Source: Brevundimonas subvibrioides
GTDB taxonomy: Bacteria; Pseudomonadota; Alphaproteobacteria; Caulobacterales; Caulobacteraceae
NCBI GenBank assembly: GCA_002280475.1
Contig: NCEB01000007.1
Coordinates: forward strand, 62,001 to 126,000
Direction: 5' to 3'
Length of the DNA stretch: 64,000 nucleotides
Part shown: one piece after another, positions 3,540-60,510 of the stretch
How positions within the stretch are numbered: position 1 is the first letter of the stretch
Layout of the letters: every line of letters begins with the position of its first letter
Made by a program: the position numbers and the translations under genes
The notes under the pieces: model-generated
What the model was told of the DNA's origin: nothing
Seen by the model: only the letters and a program-made list of their open reading frames with translations
Database searches by the model: none

Positions 3540-4396
3540 TCCGCACCCTCTTCATCATCGCCGGCGCGGCGTTCGTTCTGTCGATCGCCACGATCGGCGG
3601 CGCCGCCGCCCTGGGCAGCCGCGATCTGGCCGCCAACGGCTGGTCCTGGACCTTCACCGAGGACGAGTGGGGCAACGGCCGCATCCAGCGCGCCGGCAAG
3701 GCCGAGGATCTCGGCCCTGACATCACCCGCTCGGTCGCCTTCGAGGGCGGCGAGCGTCTGGAGCTCGACCTGCCGGCGGACGTCACCTACGTCCAGGGCG
3801 ACGCCAACACCGTCGAGATCGTCGGCCCCCAGAGCGTCATCGACCGCATCCGCGTCCAGGGTTCGCGCATCTGGATGGACAACGGCCCCGAGCGCGTCAC
3901 CGTGCGCTGGGACAGCGACGGCATCGACGGCTGGTCCGATACCGAACGCGTCCGCATCACGGTCACGGCACCGTCGGTCACGACCTTCGATCTCGAAGGC
4001 TCCTCGGACGTCAAGATCCGCGACTACGACCACGACACCATGGCCATCGACCTGTCCGGCTCGGGCGAGATCGAGATCGACGGCCGGGCCACGGCGCTGG
4101 AGCTCGATATCTCCGGCTCGGGCGAGGCCGACCTGTCCCGCCTCATCCTGACCGACGCCAATGTCGCCATCGCCGGCTCGGGCGAGGCCCGCCTTGGCCC
4201 GACCGGCCGGGCGGATATCACCATCTCGGGTTCGGGCGACGTCGAGCTGACGCAGCAGCCCGCGACGCTGAACCAGTCGATCAGCGGGTCGGGCGACATC
4301 GACGTGGTCAGCGTCCGGTCCGAGCGGCGCGTGTCCGACACGCCGCCGGTCACCGTCTCGACGACCCGTTCGGTCGAGGTGACGGAAGGACGGTAG
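3536..4396 (+). CDS. GIN-domain (DUF2807/DUF4097-like) envelope protein
   Basis: A 286-residue protein with an N-terminal hydrophobic segment (residues 3-27, IRTLFIIAGAAFVLSIATIGGAAAL) that acts as a signal peptide or anchor. The region from about 60 to 265 is beta-rich with recurring S-G-S-G turns (DLSGSGEIEID, DISGSGEADLS, AIAGSGEARLG, TISGSGDVELT, SISGSGDID). This spacing is characteristic of the right-handed beta-helix GIN domain. Such proteins were once called putative autotransporter adhesins, but the function is unproven. It is the last gene of the padR operon and is probably periplasmic or surface-located. Confidence 0.82.
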   Translation: MIRTLFIIAGAAFVLSIATIGGAAALGSRDLAANGWSWTFTEDEWGNGRIQRAGKAEDLGPDITRSVAFEGGERLELDLPADVTYVQGDANTVEIVGPQSVIDRIRVQGSRIWMDNGPERVTVRWDSDGIDGWSDTERVRITVTAPSVTTFDLEGSSDVKIRDYDHDTMAIDLSGSGEIEIDGRATALELDISGSGEADLSRLILTDANVAIAGSGEARLGPTGRADITISGSGDVELTQQPATLNQSISGSGDIDVVSVRSERRVSDTPPVTVSTTRSVEVTEGR

Positions 4397-4405
4397 GGGC
4401 GGGGT

Positions 4406-4430
4406 CCCTTCTCCCCTTGCGAGAGAAGGG
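4406..4430. terminator. Hairpin after the padR operon
   Basis: CCCTTCTC (4406-4413) pairs perfectly with GAGAAGGG (4423-4430) around a 9-nt loop, 10 bp after the stop of the GIN-domain gene. There is no T-run, so it may be a Rho-dependent or processing hairpin, or a dispersed palindromic repeat, rather than a classical intrinsic terminator. Confidence 0.45.
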
Positions 4431-4447
4431 GCAGTCGGTTGGCCCTG

Positions 4448-4507
4448 GAGCATGATCGATTGAGGAGGACCCCCTGCGTGGGTCCGCCGAAAGCGTGAAT
4501 CATGCTC
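4448..4507 (+). repeat. 60-bp two-stem palindromic element, copy A
   Basis: Outer stem GAGCATGAT (4448-4456) pairs with ATCATGCTC (4499-4507). Inner stem GGACCC (4467-4472) pairs with GGGTCC (4480-4485). Between the stems are the bases TGAGGA on the left and GCCGA on the right, which are shared with copies B and C. It is 60 bp, exactly the length of the other two copies, although almost all paired bases differ. Copy B follows in opposite orientation after 13 bp. Confidence 0.7.
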
Positions 4508-4520
4508 TCGCTGGATCCTG

Positions 4521-4580
4521 GACCCTGATTCACGGCATCAGCGGAATCGCGAAGCGATTCCCCCTCAGCCGATCAGGGTC
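4521..4580 (-). repeat. 60-bp two-stem palindromic element, copy B
   Basis: Outer stem GACCCTGAT (4521-4529) pairs with ATCAGGGTC (4572-4580). The inner hairpin GGAATCGC/GCGATTCC is perfect with a 3-nt loop. Read on the minus strand, it aligns without gaps to copy C at 60256-60315. It differs at outer-stem positions where both partners changed together. It ends on the last base of the M16 peptidase stop codon. Confidence 0.72.
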
Positions 4581-7420
4581 TAGGGGATCGGCTGAACCTC
4601 GACCGTCATTCCCAGCGCCTCGAACTGCGGGCGCACCACCGAGGCGTCGCCCACCACGACCCAGACGAAGCGGTCCGGATCGATCGCGGCGCGGGCGGCG
4701 GCGTCCATCTCGGCCGGGGTCAGGGCGCGGGTGCGGCTGGCCACCGTCTCGGCGTAGTCGTCCGGACGATCGAACAGGGCGTTCGTCATCAGGGCGTTCA
4801 TCACCTGGGCCGAAGTCTCGTACTGGCCGGCGAGCGAGCGGGTGTTGCCGGCGACGGCGCGGTCGCGTTCGGCCGCCGTGACGCCCTCGGCTTCCAGGAA
4901 CCGCTCGTACTGGGCGATCAGGGCCGCGACCGAGTCGGCCGTGCGGTTGGCCTGGACCGGCGCGTTGATCAGATACGGCACCTGGTGCTCGACCAGATTC
5001 ACGTTGCCGCGCACGCCGTAGGACCAGCCCTTGGTCTCGCGCAGGTCGGCGTTGATCCGCGACAGGAAGTCCGCCCCCAGGATGGAGTTGGCGGCGTTCA
5101 GCGTCAGGGTGTCGTCCGTGCCCGACAGCGGCAGGATCTGCCCGCCCAGGATCAGCGACTGCGGCGACTGCGGCCGGTCGATCAGGACGATGCGCGGCTG
5201 GGCGGCCGGAACGGTGGCGGCGAACCGCTTCTCGCCCCTGGCGGCTGAGGGCGCGGACCAGTCGCCCAGGGCCCGGTTCAGCTCGGCCTGGACCTCGGCC
5301 AGGGGCCGGTCCGAAACCACGAACACGGTGGCGTTGTCCGGGCGGATCCAGGCGGCGTGCTCGCCGCGCAGGTCGGCGGCCGTCAGGGCCCGGACCGTGG
5401 CCTCGTCGCCCGTACCGGTGAAGCCACGGCCATAGGGGCTGTCGGGCCCGTAGAGCAGCGGCGGCAGGGCGCGCAGCGCGATGGCGTTGGGGTTGGTGCG
5501 TTCGTTGGCGATGGCCGACAGACGCTGTTGGCGCACCCGCTCGACCTCGGCCTCGGAGAAGGCCGGGTTGCGGATGACGTCGGCCAGCAACGTCAGCGAC
5601 GGGGCCAGGTTGGCGCTGGGGCTCGACAGGGTCGCGGTCGAGCGATCCATCGAGGCGCCGACGTTGATGTTGGCGCCCAGTCGTTCCTGCGCCTCGGCCA
5701 GATCGGTCGGGCCGCGCGTGGTGGTGGCCTCGTCCAGCAGGTCCAGCATCAGGCTGTGGGCCCCCAGGCGATCGGCCCGGTCGGCGGCATAGCCGGCGTC
5801 GAACTCGACCGCGACGCGGGTCACCGGCACGGTGTCGACCTGGACGTAGACGACCTCCATGCCGTTCGACAGGCGGGCGCGCTCGACGGCGGGGAAGTCG
5901 ATGTCCGGCACCTCGCCGATCTCGGGCATGGCCATGCGCTCGACGCGCTGGATCTCCTGTGCGGGGACAGGGGTGGCCCCCGGCGGGGCCGAGGCGGCCT
6001 CGACATAGGCCTCGCGCTCGCCCGGAGCGATGGTGATGGAGGCGACCGGCCGGGTCAGCCAGCGCTGCATGGCGTCGCGGACCTGGGCCGGGGTGACCGA
6101 GGCATAGGCCTCCAGCTCGCGCTTGTAATAGTCGGGATCGCCCGCATAGAGCTGGCCCTCGGCCAGGGTCGAGGCCTTGCCGTTGACCTGCTCCAGGCTC
6201 TGCAGCGTGCCGGCGACGTAGCGGGTGGCGACGCGGGCGACCTCTTCCTCGGTCGGGCCGTTCTGGATCAGGTCGGCCATGATGGCGTCGAGACGGGCAC
6301 CGACGGCCTCCGCGTCCTCGCCGGCCTTCACATTGGCCGAGACCTGGAAGATGCCGACGCGGTGATAGGCCTGCATGCCGGCCTGCACCGAAACGGCCGT
6401 CTCGTCGCCGCGAACCAGCTCATTGTCCAGCCGCGAACTGGCCAGTCCGCCCAGCACCGAGGCGCCGACCGCCAGGGGCACGGCGTCCTCGCTCAGCATG
6501 CCGGGGACGGCCCAGTTGCGGGTGATGCGGGTGTTGGCCACCCGGTCGTGGAGGGTGATCTCGACCGGCGCGTCCAGCGTCGGCACGTCGGCCTGGGCGG
6601 GTTCGTTCACCGGTCCGCGCGCGATCGGCCCGAAATAGCGCTCGGTCAGGGTGCGCGCCGTGGCTTCGTCGATGTCGCCCGACAGGACCAGGACCGCGTT
6701 GTTCGGACCATAGTTGTCGCGGAACCAGTTGCGCACCGTCTCCAGGCTGGCGGCGTCCAGATCGGCCATCGAGCCGATGGCCGAGTGGCGATAGGGATGT
6801 CCAACGGGGAACAGGGTGTCCTGCTGGGTGTAGGAGAACAGGCCGTAGGGCTGGTTGTCGCGCTGACGCTTCTCGTTCTGGACGACGCCGCGTTGCAGAT
6901 CGAGTACGTCCTGGCCGACCTCGCCCAGCAGATAGCCCATCCGGTCGCTTTCCAGGAACAGGGTCTGCTCCAGGGCCGGGGTGGGGACGGTCTGGAAATA
7001 GTTGGTGCGGTCGAACCAGGTGGTGCCGTTCAGATTGGTCGGCCCCAGCGCCCGCATGCGGCCCAGATAGCTGCCGGGCGCGTTCTCGGATCCGCCGAAC
7101 ATCAGGTGTTCGAACAGGTGGGCGAAGCCGGTCGAACCGGCCGGCTCGTCCTTGGAGCCGACGTTGTACCAGATCGACACCGCGACGACCGGGGCCTTGC
7201 GGTCCTCGTGGACCAGCACCGTCAGGCCGTTGTCCAGGGTGAAGCGCGACCACGGGATGTCGACCTCGGCCACCAGATCGGCGACCGGCGCGGCCTGCAG
7301 GTCCTGGGCCTGGGCGACGCTGGGGGCGCTCGCCACGGCGACGGCGGGGGCCTGGGCGAACGCCAGGGCGGGGGCCGTGGCGGCGAGGAGGGCGGCGAGC
7401 GATACGGCGCGAAGACGCAT
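4580..7420 (-). CDS. M16 family zinc metallopeptidase (two-domain, secreted)
   Basis: A 946-residue protein with a signal peptide (MRLRAVSLAALLAATAPALA, cleavage probably after AFA-Q, residues 1-23). The N-terminal M16 domain has the inverted zinc motif HLFEH at residues 101-105, with a downstream Glu in QNEKRQ as third ligand. The second half repeats the fold without the motif (from about 510), as in the processing-peptidase family. It probably acts in the periplasm on peptides. Two more proteins of the same length and plan lie at 42719 and 47562. It ends convergently with the padR operon and is divergent from the ku remnant. Confidence 0.9.
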   Translation of the reverse strand: MRLRAVSLAALLAATAPALAFAQAPAVAVASAPSVAQAQDLQAAPVADLVAEVDIPWSRFTLDNGLTVLVHEDRKAPVVAVSIWYNVGSKDEPAGSTGFAHLFEHLMFGGSENAPGSYLGRMRALGPTNLNGTTWFDRTNYFQTVPTPALEQTLFLESDRMGYLLGEVGQDVLDLQRGVVQNEKRQRDNQPYGLFSYTQQDTLFPVGHPYRHSAIGSMADLDAASLETVRNWFRDNYGPNNAVLVLSGDIDEATARTLTERYFGPIARGPVNEPAQADVPTLDAPVEITLHDRVANTRITRNWAVPGMLSEDAVPLAVGASVLGGLASSRLDNELVRGDETAVSVQAGMQAYHRVGIFQVSANVKAGEDAEAVGARLDAIMADLIQNGPTEEEVARVATRYVAGTLQSLEQVNGKASTLAEGQLYAGDPDYYKRELEAYASVTPAQVRDAMQRWLTRPVASITIAPGEREAYVEAASAPPGATPVPAQEIQRVERMAMPEIGEVPDIDFPAVERARLSNGMEVVYVQVDTVPVTRVAVEFDAGYAADRADRLGAHSLMLDLLDEATTTRGPTDLAEAQERLGANINVGASMDRSTATLSSPSANLAPSLTLLADVIRNPAFSEAEVERVRQQRLSAIANERTNPNAIALRALPPLLYGPDSPYGRGFTGTGDEATVRALTAADLRGEHAAWIRPDNATVFVVSDRPLAEVQAELNRALGDWSAPSAARGEKRFAATVPAAQPRIVLIDRPQSPQSLILGGQILPLSGTDDTLTLNAANSILGADFLSRINADLRETKGWSYGVRGNVNLVEHQVPYLINAPVQANRTADSVAALIAQYERFLEAEGVTAAERDRAVAGNTRSLAGQYETSAQVMNALMTNALFDRPDDYAETVASRTRALTPAEMDAAARAAIDPDRFVWVVVGDASVVRPQFEALGMTVEVQPIP

Positions 7421-60196: not shown

Positions 60197-60255
60197 GTTC
60201 GCTCCCTCCCTGGAGCCGTCGGGCCCAGGTTATCCCTGTGTCGCCGGGCCGCCTA

Positions 60256-60315
60256 GACCTTGATCAGCTGAGGAGGAATCGCTTCGCGATTCCGCCGATG
60301 CTGTGAATCAAGGTC
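60256..60315 (+). repeat. 60-bp two-stem palindromic element, copy C
   Basis: The outer stem is GACCTTGAT/ATCAAGGTC, the second stem CAGC (60265-60268) with GCTG (60300-60303), and the inner hairpin GGAATCGC/GCGATTCC with TTC loop. It aligns without gaps to copy B (minus strand) and to copy A at internal-loop bases. It lies in the 314-bp spacer between the retropepsin-like gene and the alpha/beta hydrolase. The rest of that spacer (60316-60510) shows no convincing gene. Confidence 0.72.
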
Positions 60316-60510
60316 CAGCGGTTTCCTGGGGCCTGATCCGACCGGAAAAAGGCGTGACAGGCTATCGGCTCAGGACAGGAGGCGTCGATGCTCTCTCTTC
60401 TTGTGCGTGCCGCCGCGCTTCAAGCCGCGCCCGCGTCGACCCTTCTGGCGGAACGGGCGGGTCGAAACCTCGGGGCTCAGCCGCCCGGGTGCGACGACGG
60501 GACTGAACAC

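What the first reader, a model, noticed from the sequence alone, without database searches (positions are those of the whole stretch)
4448..4580. A family of covarying 60-bp two-stem elements, two copies side by side in opposite orientation
Copies A (4448-4507, plus) and B (4521-4580, read on minus) and copy C (60256-60315) are each exactly 60 bp and align without gaps. Internal-loop bases are the same (TGAGGA/G left, GCCGA or GCTGA right, GTGAATC near the end). The outer stem changes from GAGCATGAT/ATCATGCTC to GACCCTGAT/ATCAGGGTC to GACCTTGAT/ATCAAGGTC. The inner stem changes from GGACCC/GGGTCC to GGAATCGC/GCGATTCC. Pairing is kept while the sequence differs, so the structure seems to be under selection. 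The A/B head-to-head layout after convergent genes resembles bacterial REP/BIME arrays, but I know of no matching published element.
Basis: partly seen in the sequence, partly recalled or inferred. Interest (0 to 1): 0.7.

Follow-up and report, generated by a model that had tools for sequence, protein, structure and literature searches.

The report
Jumping-gene relics carrying methylation marks
The paired hairpins are the two halves of one small, gene-less jumping element whose ends resemble a known transposon family (IS630) and carry a conserved cluster of the DNA sites that the bacterium's cell-cycle methylation enzyme marks, which suggests that jumping may be tied to DNA replication.

Summary
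In detail: A, B and C are 60-bp covarying hairpins of a dispersed family. The interpretation needs changing. A and B are the right and left halves of one 133-bp element (4448-4580), found 7 times in this genome; its hairpin is found in 46 of 61 sampled genomes of the genus. It sits at CTAG with a duplicated TA, shown by empty sites in relatives. Its ends resemble those of ~1,045-bp IS630-family transposons of the genus: a matrix trained only on the small element finds the IS630 ends. So it is an IS630-type MITE, with the architecture published for Caulobacter "CIR" repeats, whose mobility was unexplained. Beyond the finding: left ends of alphaproteobacterial GAGC-type IS630s carry GANTC (the CcrM methylation site) at position 21 in 30 of 34, right ends in 0 of 34; the small elements mirror this (90 of 100 copies at one end, 2 of 100 at the other). 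I infer that CcrM methylation gates transposition or transposase expression, as Dam does for IS10. That step is untested. No RAYT transposase is linked. The covariation is real, but arm-to-arm templating may explain part of it. No IS630 gene was found in this draft genome itself.

The parts
4448..4580 (-). One 133-bp IS630-type MITE (subtype II): left half B, linker, inverted right half A; left terminus at 4580
   Evidence: same order and linker in 7 copies of this genome; same layout in relatives
4521..4580 (-). Hairpin B = left-end half (GANTC at element positions 21, 33, 50)
4508..4520 (-). 13-bp linker between the two halves
4448..4507 (+). Hairpin A = right-end half (no GANTC at position 21)
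4580..4583 (.). CTAG at the left terminus; TA at 4581-4582 is the target dinucleotide; on the minus strand TAG is the stop codon of the ORF 4580-7420
4446..4447 (.). TG in place of the duplicated TA at the right terminus (decayed)
   Evidence: compared with the TA of other copies
4497..4560 (.). Four GANTC (CcrM) sites, starting at 4497, 4527, 4544 and 4556
60256..60349 (+). Copy C: subtype I element, left-end hairpin 60256-60315 plus linker and first half of the second hairpin, ending at GGAAAA without a right terminus
60254..60255 (.). TA at the left terminus of C (CTAG 60253-60256)
60276..60309 (.). Three GANTC sites in C, starting at 60276, 60288 and 60305

Best explanation
A+B is one miniature, non-autonomous transposon (MITE) of the IS630/Tc1-mariner type, and C is the left part of a sister subtype. 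SHOWN: each unit is CTA-[left-end hairpin]-linker-[inverted right-end hairpin]-TAG; it sits at CTAG with a duplicated TA; its ends resemble the terminal repeats of complete IS630-family elements of the same genus (up to 23 of 26 bases; end for end in the G121/G078 type, not clearly so in the other groups). SHOWN: the left end of alphaproteobacterial GAGC-type IS630s, on the promoter side of the transposase gene, carries GANTC at position 21 and usually again near 32 and 55, while the right end lacks the position-21 site; the MITE keeps this asymmetry. INFERRED: an IS630 transposase, present now or lost, moved the MITE in trans by binding both ends and inserting it at TA. INFERRED: CcrM methylation of the left-end GANTC cluster gates transposase binding and/or transposase transcription, so that movement or expression is favoured when the sites are hemimethylated or unmethylated after the fork passes, as Dam does for IS10. 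INFERRED: each half became a hairpin by inverted duplication of a terminal repeat; arm-to-arm templating plus some constraint then keeps the stems paired. Because the element starts with G after TA, insertion into a TAG stop codon restores the stop on both sides, which makes such sites harmless and helps explain the 3'-end location.
For: Dispersed copies: 18 left-type hairpins here, 7 with the A-type partner, 10 of subtype I, 1 solo; a GTDB scan with one motif gave 75 loci, named Brevundimonas, Phenylobacterium, Peiella or only to a higher taxon; the model hits 46 of 61 genus genomes. TA duplication: of 29 relative sequences aligned across the join of five copies, 22 by my count have one TA there. 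Target: of 100 deduplicated copies, left flank CTA in 71, right flank TAG in 58, TA on both sides in 51. IS630 ends: 24 of 29 IS630 loci gave TA-flanked ends starting GAGC; a matrix from 74 MITE ends ranks both ends first and second of about 6,750 positions in 5 of 9 distinct pairs, worst rank 13. GANTC: Brevundimonas IS630s raised the idea; the test sets were collected afterwards. Position 21: left 30 of 34, right 0 of 34, middle base variable (A 24, G 3, T 2, C 1); second site 24, third site 28, all three 19 of 34; 23 bp between second and third in 21. MITE: 90 of 100 copies at one end, 2 of 100 at the other. CcrM-type RAMA domain: 16 of 18 array-bearing genomes outside the genus, 2 of 11 alphaproteobacteria with other IS630s, 7 of 7 genus genomes tested, this one included.
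Against: No IS630 gene is found in this genome (draft, 95% complete), and some element-rich genomes (59 hits in G004, 42 in G064) lack one. Four of eight IS630-bearing genomes have 0-2 hits. Only about half of the copies keep TA on both sides. TIR identity is modest: best pairs 21-23 of 26 for the G121/G078 type, 15-21 of 26 for other groups, and in two groups (L205, L210) the IS right end is closer to the MITE left end. RAMA co-occurrence is confounded by lineage and IS subgroup; two array-bearing genomes (92% and 80% complete) lack a RAMA hit. 4 of 34 left ends lack the position-21 site, among them Methylobacterium with no GANTC at all. 9 of 34 right ends have a GANTC elsewhere, at position 1, 6 or 7. 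The total number of GANTC per Brevundimonas IS is not above expectation (2-4 against 3.3-3.5): position is unusual, not number. Which MITE end I call left was set by resemblance to a consensus that holds the site, so the split is partly circular; the asymmetry itself is not. Word searches of three papers on the CcrM regulon gave no mention of transposases in the main text. No expression, methylation or transposition was measured.
Confidence: 0.85

Rival explanations
1. The position-21 G-A-N-T-C is simply part of the transposase recognition sequence, and its match to the CcrM site is incidental; methylation plays no role.
For: G21 and C25 are common to both ends (left 34 and 33, right 29 and 33 of 34), so the transposase probably reads this place in any case. 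9 of 34 right ends have a GANTC elsewhere.
Against: Inside the left site only the N varies freely; A22 (31 of 34) and T24 (33 of 34) are near-fixed at the left end but not at the right (11 and 19), and the complete site is absent at this place from 34 of 34 right ends. Further GANTC sites recur downstream, with a 23-bp spacing in 21 of 34. Of 13 resolved non-alphaproteobacterial IS630s, 1 has two or more GANTC in the first 70 bp; 2 plasmid controls have none in the first 60.
Confidence: 0.3
2. REP/BIME: palindromic units spread by a Y1 tyrosine transposase (RAYT).
For: Short imperfect hairpins in inverted pairs, here between convergent ORFs; one of four Y1-bearing genomes (G114) is rich in copies.
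Against: No Y1_Tnp in this genome, 4 of 131 in the genus, none beside a copy. TA duplication and IS630-like ends fit a DDE enzyme. The tetranucleotide is CTAG, a target, not the recalled GTAG/GGAG of REPs.
Confidence: 0.03
3. A conserved structured RNA or 3'-end element, kept by selection on the transcript (mRNA stability, anti-read-through).
For: Strong covariation; 49 of 91 copies with two testable ends sit on a TAG stop of a coding-like frame.
Against: No Rfam family, no terminator-like or promoter-like site in 4300-4750. Stop-codon siting follows partly from target choice: background CTAG sites are stops in 53 of 182. Empty orthologous sites show that relatives manage without it. Three hairpins were rewritten to near-perfect palindromes, so pairing can be restored by mutation alone.
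Confidence: 0.08
4. A host-domesticated CcrM platform: the host keeps the elements for their GANTC sites (the published speculation for CIRs, PMC2229807).
For: GANTC at 2.25 per hairpin against 0.20 expected; sites at 21, 33 and 50 in 82, 79 and 109 of 120.
Against: Similar sites exist in the parent transposon ends, so inheritance can explain them. Hits range from 0 to 69 between congeners, and five copies tested are absent from the same place in relatives.
Confidence: 0.08

Closest known systems
CIR (Caulobacter CcrM-associated intergenic repeats; Chen and Shapiro 2003)
   Same: Two inverted-repeat arms joined by a linker, roughly 110 bp, TA at the termini, conserved GANTC, intergenic, Caulobacter and other alphaproteobacteria (passages of PMC2229807; PMC10969869)
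   Different: Direct sequence homology with CIR1-4 not tested (paper not held). Here terminal inverted repeats, TA duplication and an IS630 kinship are shown, which the 2007 review lists as '-' or '?' for CIR
IS630-type MITEs such as RUP of Streptococcus pneumoniae
   Same: About 110-135 bp, no transposase gene, TIRs similar to an IS630 element, TA target (RUP as described in PMC2229807)
   Different: Each end is itself a 60-bp two-stem hairpin, so the unit is bipartite; GANTC at position 21 of one end only
Alphaproteobacterial IS630 elements (e.g. ISRm10-1, ISRm2011-2)
   Same: TA-GAGC ends in CTAG targets; GANTC at left position 21
   Different: The parent type is about 1,045 bp with a DDE_3 transposase
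Dam-regulated IS10, IS50, IS903
   Same: Methylation sites at a transposon end or transposase promoter (PMC9296519 and PMC10073500, passages)
   Different: Different transposase family, methyltransferase (CcrM, GANTC) and host class; regulation here only inferred
REP/BIME
   Same: Paired inverted imperfect hairpins
   Different: No linked RAYT; TA duplication and IS630-like ends

Membership tests
MITE (IS630 type) | Short, without a transposase gene, dispersed in multiple copies | tested here: met
   133 bp; 18 left-type hairpin copies in this genome
MITE (IS630 type) | Terminal inverted repeats | tested here: met
   CTAGACCCTGATCGG / CTAGAGCATGATCGG and equivalents, imperfect
MITE (IS630 type) | TA target-site duplication | tested here: met
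   Empty sites with one TA, 22 of 29 alignments at five loci; TA on both sides in 51 of 100 copies
MITE (IS630 type) | Ends shared with an autonomous element | tested here: met
   Matrix from MITE ends finds IS630 ends, ranks 1-13 of about 6,750; best identity 23 of 26, lower in most groups; no such element found in this genome
MITE (IS630 type) | Mobilised in trans by that transposase | not testable with these tools
   Needs a transposition assay
CIR | Two hairpin arms plus linker, TA at termini, conserved GANTC | tested here: met
   against the description
CIR | Sequence homology to CIR1-CIR4 of C. crescentus | not tested
   CIR sequences not available; family-wide search hit 3 of 22 unnamed genera with strict filters
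REP/BIME | Linked RAYT (Y1_Tnp) transposase | tested here: not met
REP/BIME | GTAG/GGAG tetranucleotide at the hairpin foot (recalled) | tested here: not met
   CTAG, with TA-duplicated target
Structured RNA family | Match to a known Rfam family | tested here: not met
   two tRNAs only in the window
Structured RNA family | Covarying base pairs | tested here: met
   but templating between arms is an alternative cause
Methylation-regulated transposon (IS10-like logic) | Methylase sites at fixed places in one end | tested here: met
   position 21: 30 of 34 left, 0 of 34 right; other right-end sites in 9 of 34
Methylation-regulated transposon (IS10-like logic) | Transposition or transposase expression changes with methylation | not testable with these tools
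   No such data seen in the papers searched

The most novel reading that the evidence does not exclude
A whole branch of IS630-family transposons across Alphaproteobacteria is wired to the host cell cycle: CcrM methylation of a left-end GANTC cluster, whose position-21 site is missing from the right end, licenses transposition or transposase expression after the replication fork passes, and the CcrM-site-bearing intergenic repeats known as CIRs are relics of these transposon ends rather than host regulatory elements.
Probability: 0.5. Interest if true: 0.78.

Novelty: new variant of a known kind. Interest (0 to 1): 0.64.

Why it matters
It gives a likely mechanism of mobility (IS630-type TA insertion) to a class of CcrM-associated repeats described in 2003 and said in a 2007 review to need more information on mobility. 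It also explains their GANTC sites as inherited. If the left-end GANTC cluster is functional, it would be an alphaproteobacterial, CcrM-based counterpart of Dam control of IS10/IS50; a review's table lists IS10 transposition for Dam and 'unknown' in the same column for CcrM (passage). It is directly testable in Caulobacter, Brevundimonas or Sinorhizobium laboratory strains. It also warns that covariation in palindromic mobile elements need not mean RNA selection.

Tried and rejected
REP/RAYT: rejected. Rfam: no family. Terminator or promoter inside 4300-4750: none by consensus scan. R1 model hits beside IS630 genes: 0 in 29 loci, so the IS ends are related to the MITE ends but are not themselves scored as its hairpins. 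Correlation of IS630 presence with copy number: weak. In the 61-genome sample 2 of 4 IS630-bearing genomes have 15 or more hits against 8 of 57 others (my tally). CIR sequence comparison: paper not held. CcrM papers PMC11514494, PMC3973325, PMC7987155: main text searched by word only, no passage on transposases. Searches for print on CcrM/GANTC and IS630, or MITEs of Brevundimonas: (listings seen); nothing making the link was seen in them.

Rows dropped before counts: of nine copies whose flanks were searched, five had join-spanning alignments among the 30 loci held; other matches were not aligned. One search left 12 of 41 alphaproteobacterial and 3 of 16 other IS630 loci unresolved; of the 29 resolved alphaproteobacterial ones, 11 are not GAGC-type and are not in the 34 (L307, L318, L320 and L330 are weak end calls). 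3 of 14 alphaproteobacterial plasmid loci (R. leguminosarum, Sulfitobacter, Microvirga) had no reliable ends and were left out. The Brevundimonas IS set is 5 groups from 24 of 29 loci. One search counted some elements twice; one search replaces it. A first count of MITE ends (37 of 49 left, 0 of 29 right) had dropped 18 end sequences seen on both sides, 9 of them with the site; one search recounts by copy. The two right ends with the site look like miscalled or decayed ends.

Full report
What is there. Searching the window's own genome (3.13 Mb, 75 contigs, 95% complete) with C gave 18 copies of the left-type hairpin. Printing their surroundings showed a larger unit. In 7 copies hairpin B is followed by a 13-bp linker of nearly the same sequence and by hairpin A in inverted orientation; the whole is 133 bp and in its intact form runs from CTAG to CTAG. 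In 10 copies (subtype I, which includes C) the left hairpin is followed by a different second hairpin; 7 of these reach a right terminus (CTAG, once CTGG, once GTAG) and 3, including C, stop at GGAAAA inside the second hairpin. One copy is solo. So A and B are two halves of one element. At the A/B site the left TA is intact and is part of the stop codon TAG of the minus-strand ORF 4580-7420; the right TA has become TG.

Distribution. A scan of the named GTDB species genomes with one 27-base motif gave 75 loci; those named to genus are Brevundimonas, Phenylobacterium or Peiella, the rest only to a higher taxon. A covariance model of 20 hairpins of this genome hit 46 of 61 genomes of the genus, with up to 69 hits; hits overcount elements, because both halves and some reverse strands score. 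In a stricter family-wide search 32 of 199 genomes and 3 of 22 genera had hits. The second hairpin differs between species while the layout stays.

Insertion. I joined the flanks of nine copies and searched 131 genus genomes. For five copies, 29 relative sequences among the loci held aligned across the join; in 22 of these, by my count, a single TA stands where the element sits here between two; the other 7 have another sequence or a gap there. Over 100 deduplicated copies the left flank is CTA in 71 and the right flank TAG in 58; TA is on both sides in 51; the first element base is G in 95. In the larger, not deduplicated set the flanks beyond about four bases look random. This is a TA duplication in a preferred CTAG target. 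CTAG is rare here (22 against 179 expected in the window). A coding-like frame runs in register to the element's terminal triplet at 69 of 191 ends (63 of them with TAG intact), against 3 and 4 in the other two frames; 49 of 91 copies with two testable ends have at least one such stop, 11 have two. Background CTAG sites are stops in 53 of 182 (loci) and 3 of 20 (window); 49/91 against 53/182 gives P = 1e-4. Since the element begins with G, TA+G restores the stop codon on both sides.

The parent. Y1 transposases (RAYT), expected for REP/BIME, are absent from this genome and present in 4 of 131 genus genomes, none within about 1.5 kb of a copy, though one of the four (G114) is rich in copies. 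DDE_3 (IS630) transposases are present in 8 of 131, not in this genome. In 24 of 29 loci their elements could be bounded: 1,040-1,051 bp, flanked by TA, beginning and ending with GAGC; the transposase reads away from the left end and matches DDE_3 and an IS630-type helix-turn-helix. A position matrix built only from 74 MITE ends, applied to the IS630 loci, ranked both true ends first and second of about 6,750 positions in 5 of 9 distinct pairs; the worst rank was 13. Base by base the likeness is 21 of 26 (left to left) and 22-23 of 26 (right to right) for the G121/G078 type, where each IS end is also closer to the matching MITE end than to the other (19 and 20). For the other groups the best values are 15-21 and the end-for-end match is absent or, for L205 and L210, reversed at the right end. 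So kinship of the ends is shown, the exact parent is not. Against a simple current parent: several element-rich genomes have no IS630 gene, and four of eight IS630-bearing genomes have 0-2 hits.

GANTC. In the five Brevundimonas IS630 groups every GANTC of the element (2-4 per ~1,045 bp) lies in the first 60 bases of the left end, at 21, 28-33 and 51-56, with a constant 23 bp between the last two, except one site at position 7 from the right end in one group; one group lacks the site at 21. The number per element is as expected by composition; only the position is special. I then tested fresh material. Plasmid-borne IS630s: of 11 alphaproteobacterial elements with reliable ends, 8 have GANTC at position 21; Paracoccus and Komagataeibacter have only later sites, Methylobacterium none; two non-alphaproteobacterial controls have none in the first 60 bases. 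Genome samples of class and phylum, with ends called without regard to GANTC: 18 of 29 resolved alphaproteobacterial elements and 1 of 13 others have two or more GANTC in the first 70 bases; these 18 are exactly the GAGC/GAGT/AAGC-type ones, and all 18 have a site at exactly 21. Pooled: left 30 of 34, right 0 of 34 at position 21, with the middle base variable; second site (27-36) in 24, third (50-58) in 28, all three in 19, the 23-bp spacing in 21; 9 right ends have a GANTC at position 1, 6 or 7. The MITE shows the same asymmetry: of 100 copies, 90 have the site at 21 in one end and 2 in the other, the left end being defined as the one closer to the left consensus. RAMA, the domain that rings in Caulobacter vibrioides alone among 14 control genomes and that I take as the mark of CcrM (recalled), is present in this genome, in 7 of 7 genus genomes tested, in 16 of 18 array-bearing genomes outside the genus, and in 2 of 11 alphaproteobacteria with other IS630 types. 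Lineage is a confounder: the array-free genomes may be an AT-rich branch.

Structure. Covariation is strong. But 3 of 120 hairpins (L017, L083, L278) have their left loop replaced by the complement of the right arm, and one right half of G121 (L238) looks the same by eye. This is what template switching in a quasi-palindrome produces, so pairing can be restored by mutation. RNA-level selection is therefore not shown. There is no terminator or promoter match in 4300-4750 and no Rfam family.

How it probably works. Shown: anatomy, target, duplication, kinship of the ends with IS630, asymmetric GANTC. Inferred: mobilisation by an IS630 transposase in trans; gating by CcrM through the left end and the transposase promoter, as for Dam and IS10/IS50/IS903 (precedent seen in passages of PMC9296519 and PMC10073500). 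Of the two inferences the first is likely; the second I put at about one in two.

Relation to the known. The 2007 review PMC2229807 (passages read) describes CIRs as two arms with a linker, about 110 bp, conserved GANTC, TA at the termini, target duplication unknown, mobility unexplained. The present elements fit this description, and I regard them as CIR-like, but I could not compare sequences. RUP of pneumococcus, in the same review, is the nearest precedent for an IS630-driven MITE. What appears new is the kinship and target shown for this class, and the left-end GANTC cluster of alphaproteobacterial IS630s; my searches listed no paper making that link, within an open-access library only.

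Noticed in passing
60256-60349; also L022 and L029 (G000 C71 near 42545, C72 near 40425): Three subtype I copies end at the same base (GGAAAA) at the loop edge of the second hairpin, with no right terminus; in two of them the next gene (YchF-like and MoxR-like by eye) seems to lack its usual start. Could be hairpin-loop cleavage with deletion, or an assembly fault.
   Followed up: partly
L003/L023 (G000:C25:29507-29569) and G000:C25:30935-31216: One copy lies about 1.4 kb from this genome's own RAMA-domain (CcrM-like) gene.
   Followed up: no
window, whole: CTAG is about eightfold under-represented (22 found, 179 expected by base composition).
   Followed up: no
L017, L083, L278, and right half of L238: Internal loops rewritten into near-perfect palindromes, i.e. 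probable natural template-switch events inside hairpins.
   Followed up: partly
L241 and L242 (G121 at 0.65 Mb and 2.90 Mb): Two copies with identical sequence and identical near flanks in opposite orientation, so a larger inverted duplication of that genome probably carries the element.
   Followed up: no
L207; plasmid loci L285, L287, L289-L296: Ten annotated transposase CDS of 943-964 nt, none divisible by three, and two overlapping ORFs in L207 suggest programmed frameshifting in these IS630s.
   Followed up: no
right ends of 34 IS630s: The right end mostly keeps G21 and C25 but never makes a full GANTC at 21, as if a methylatable site were avoided there.
   Followed up: no
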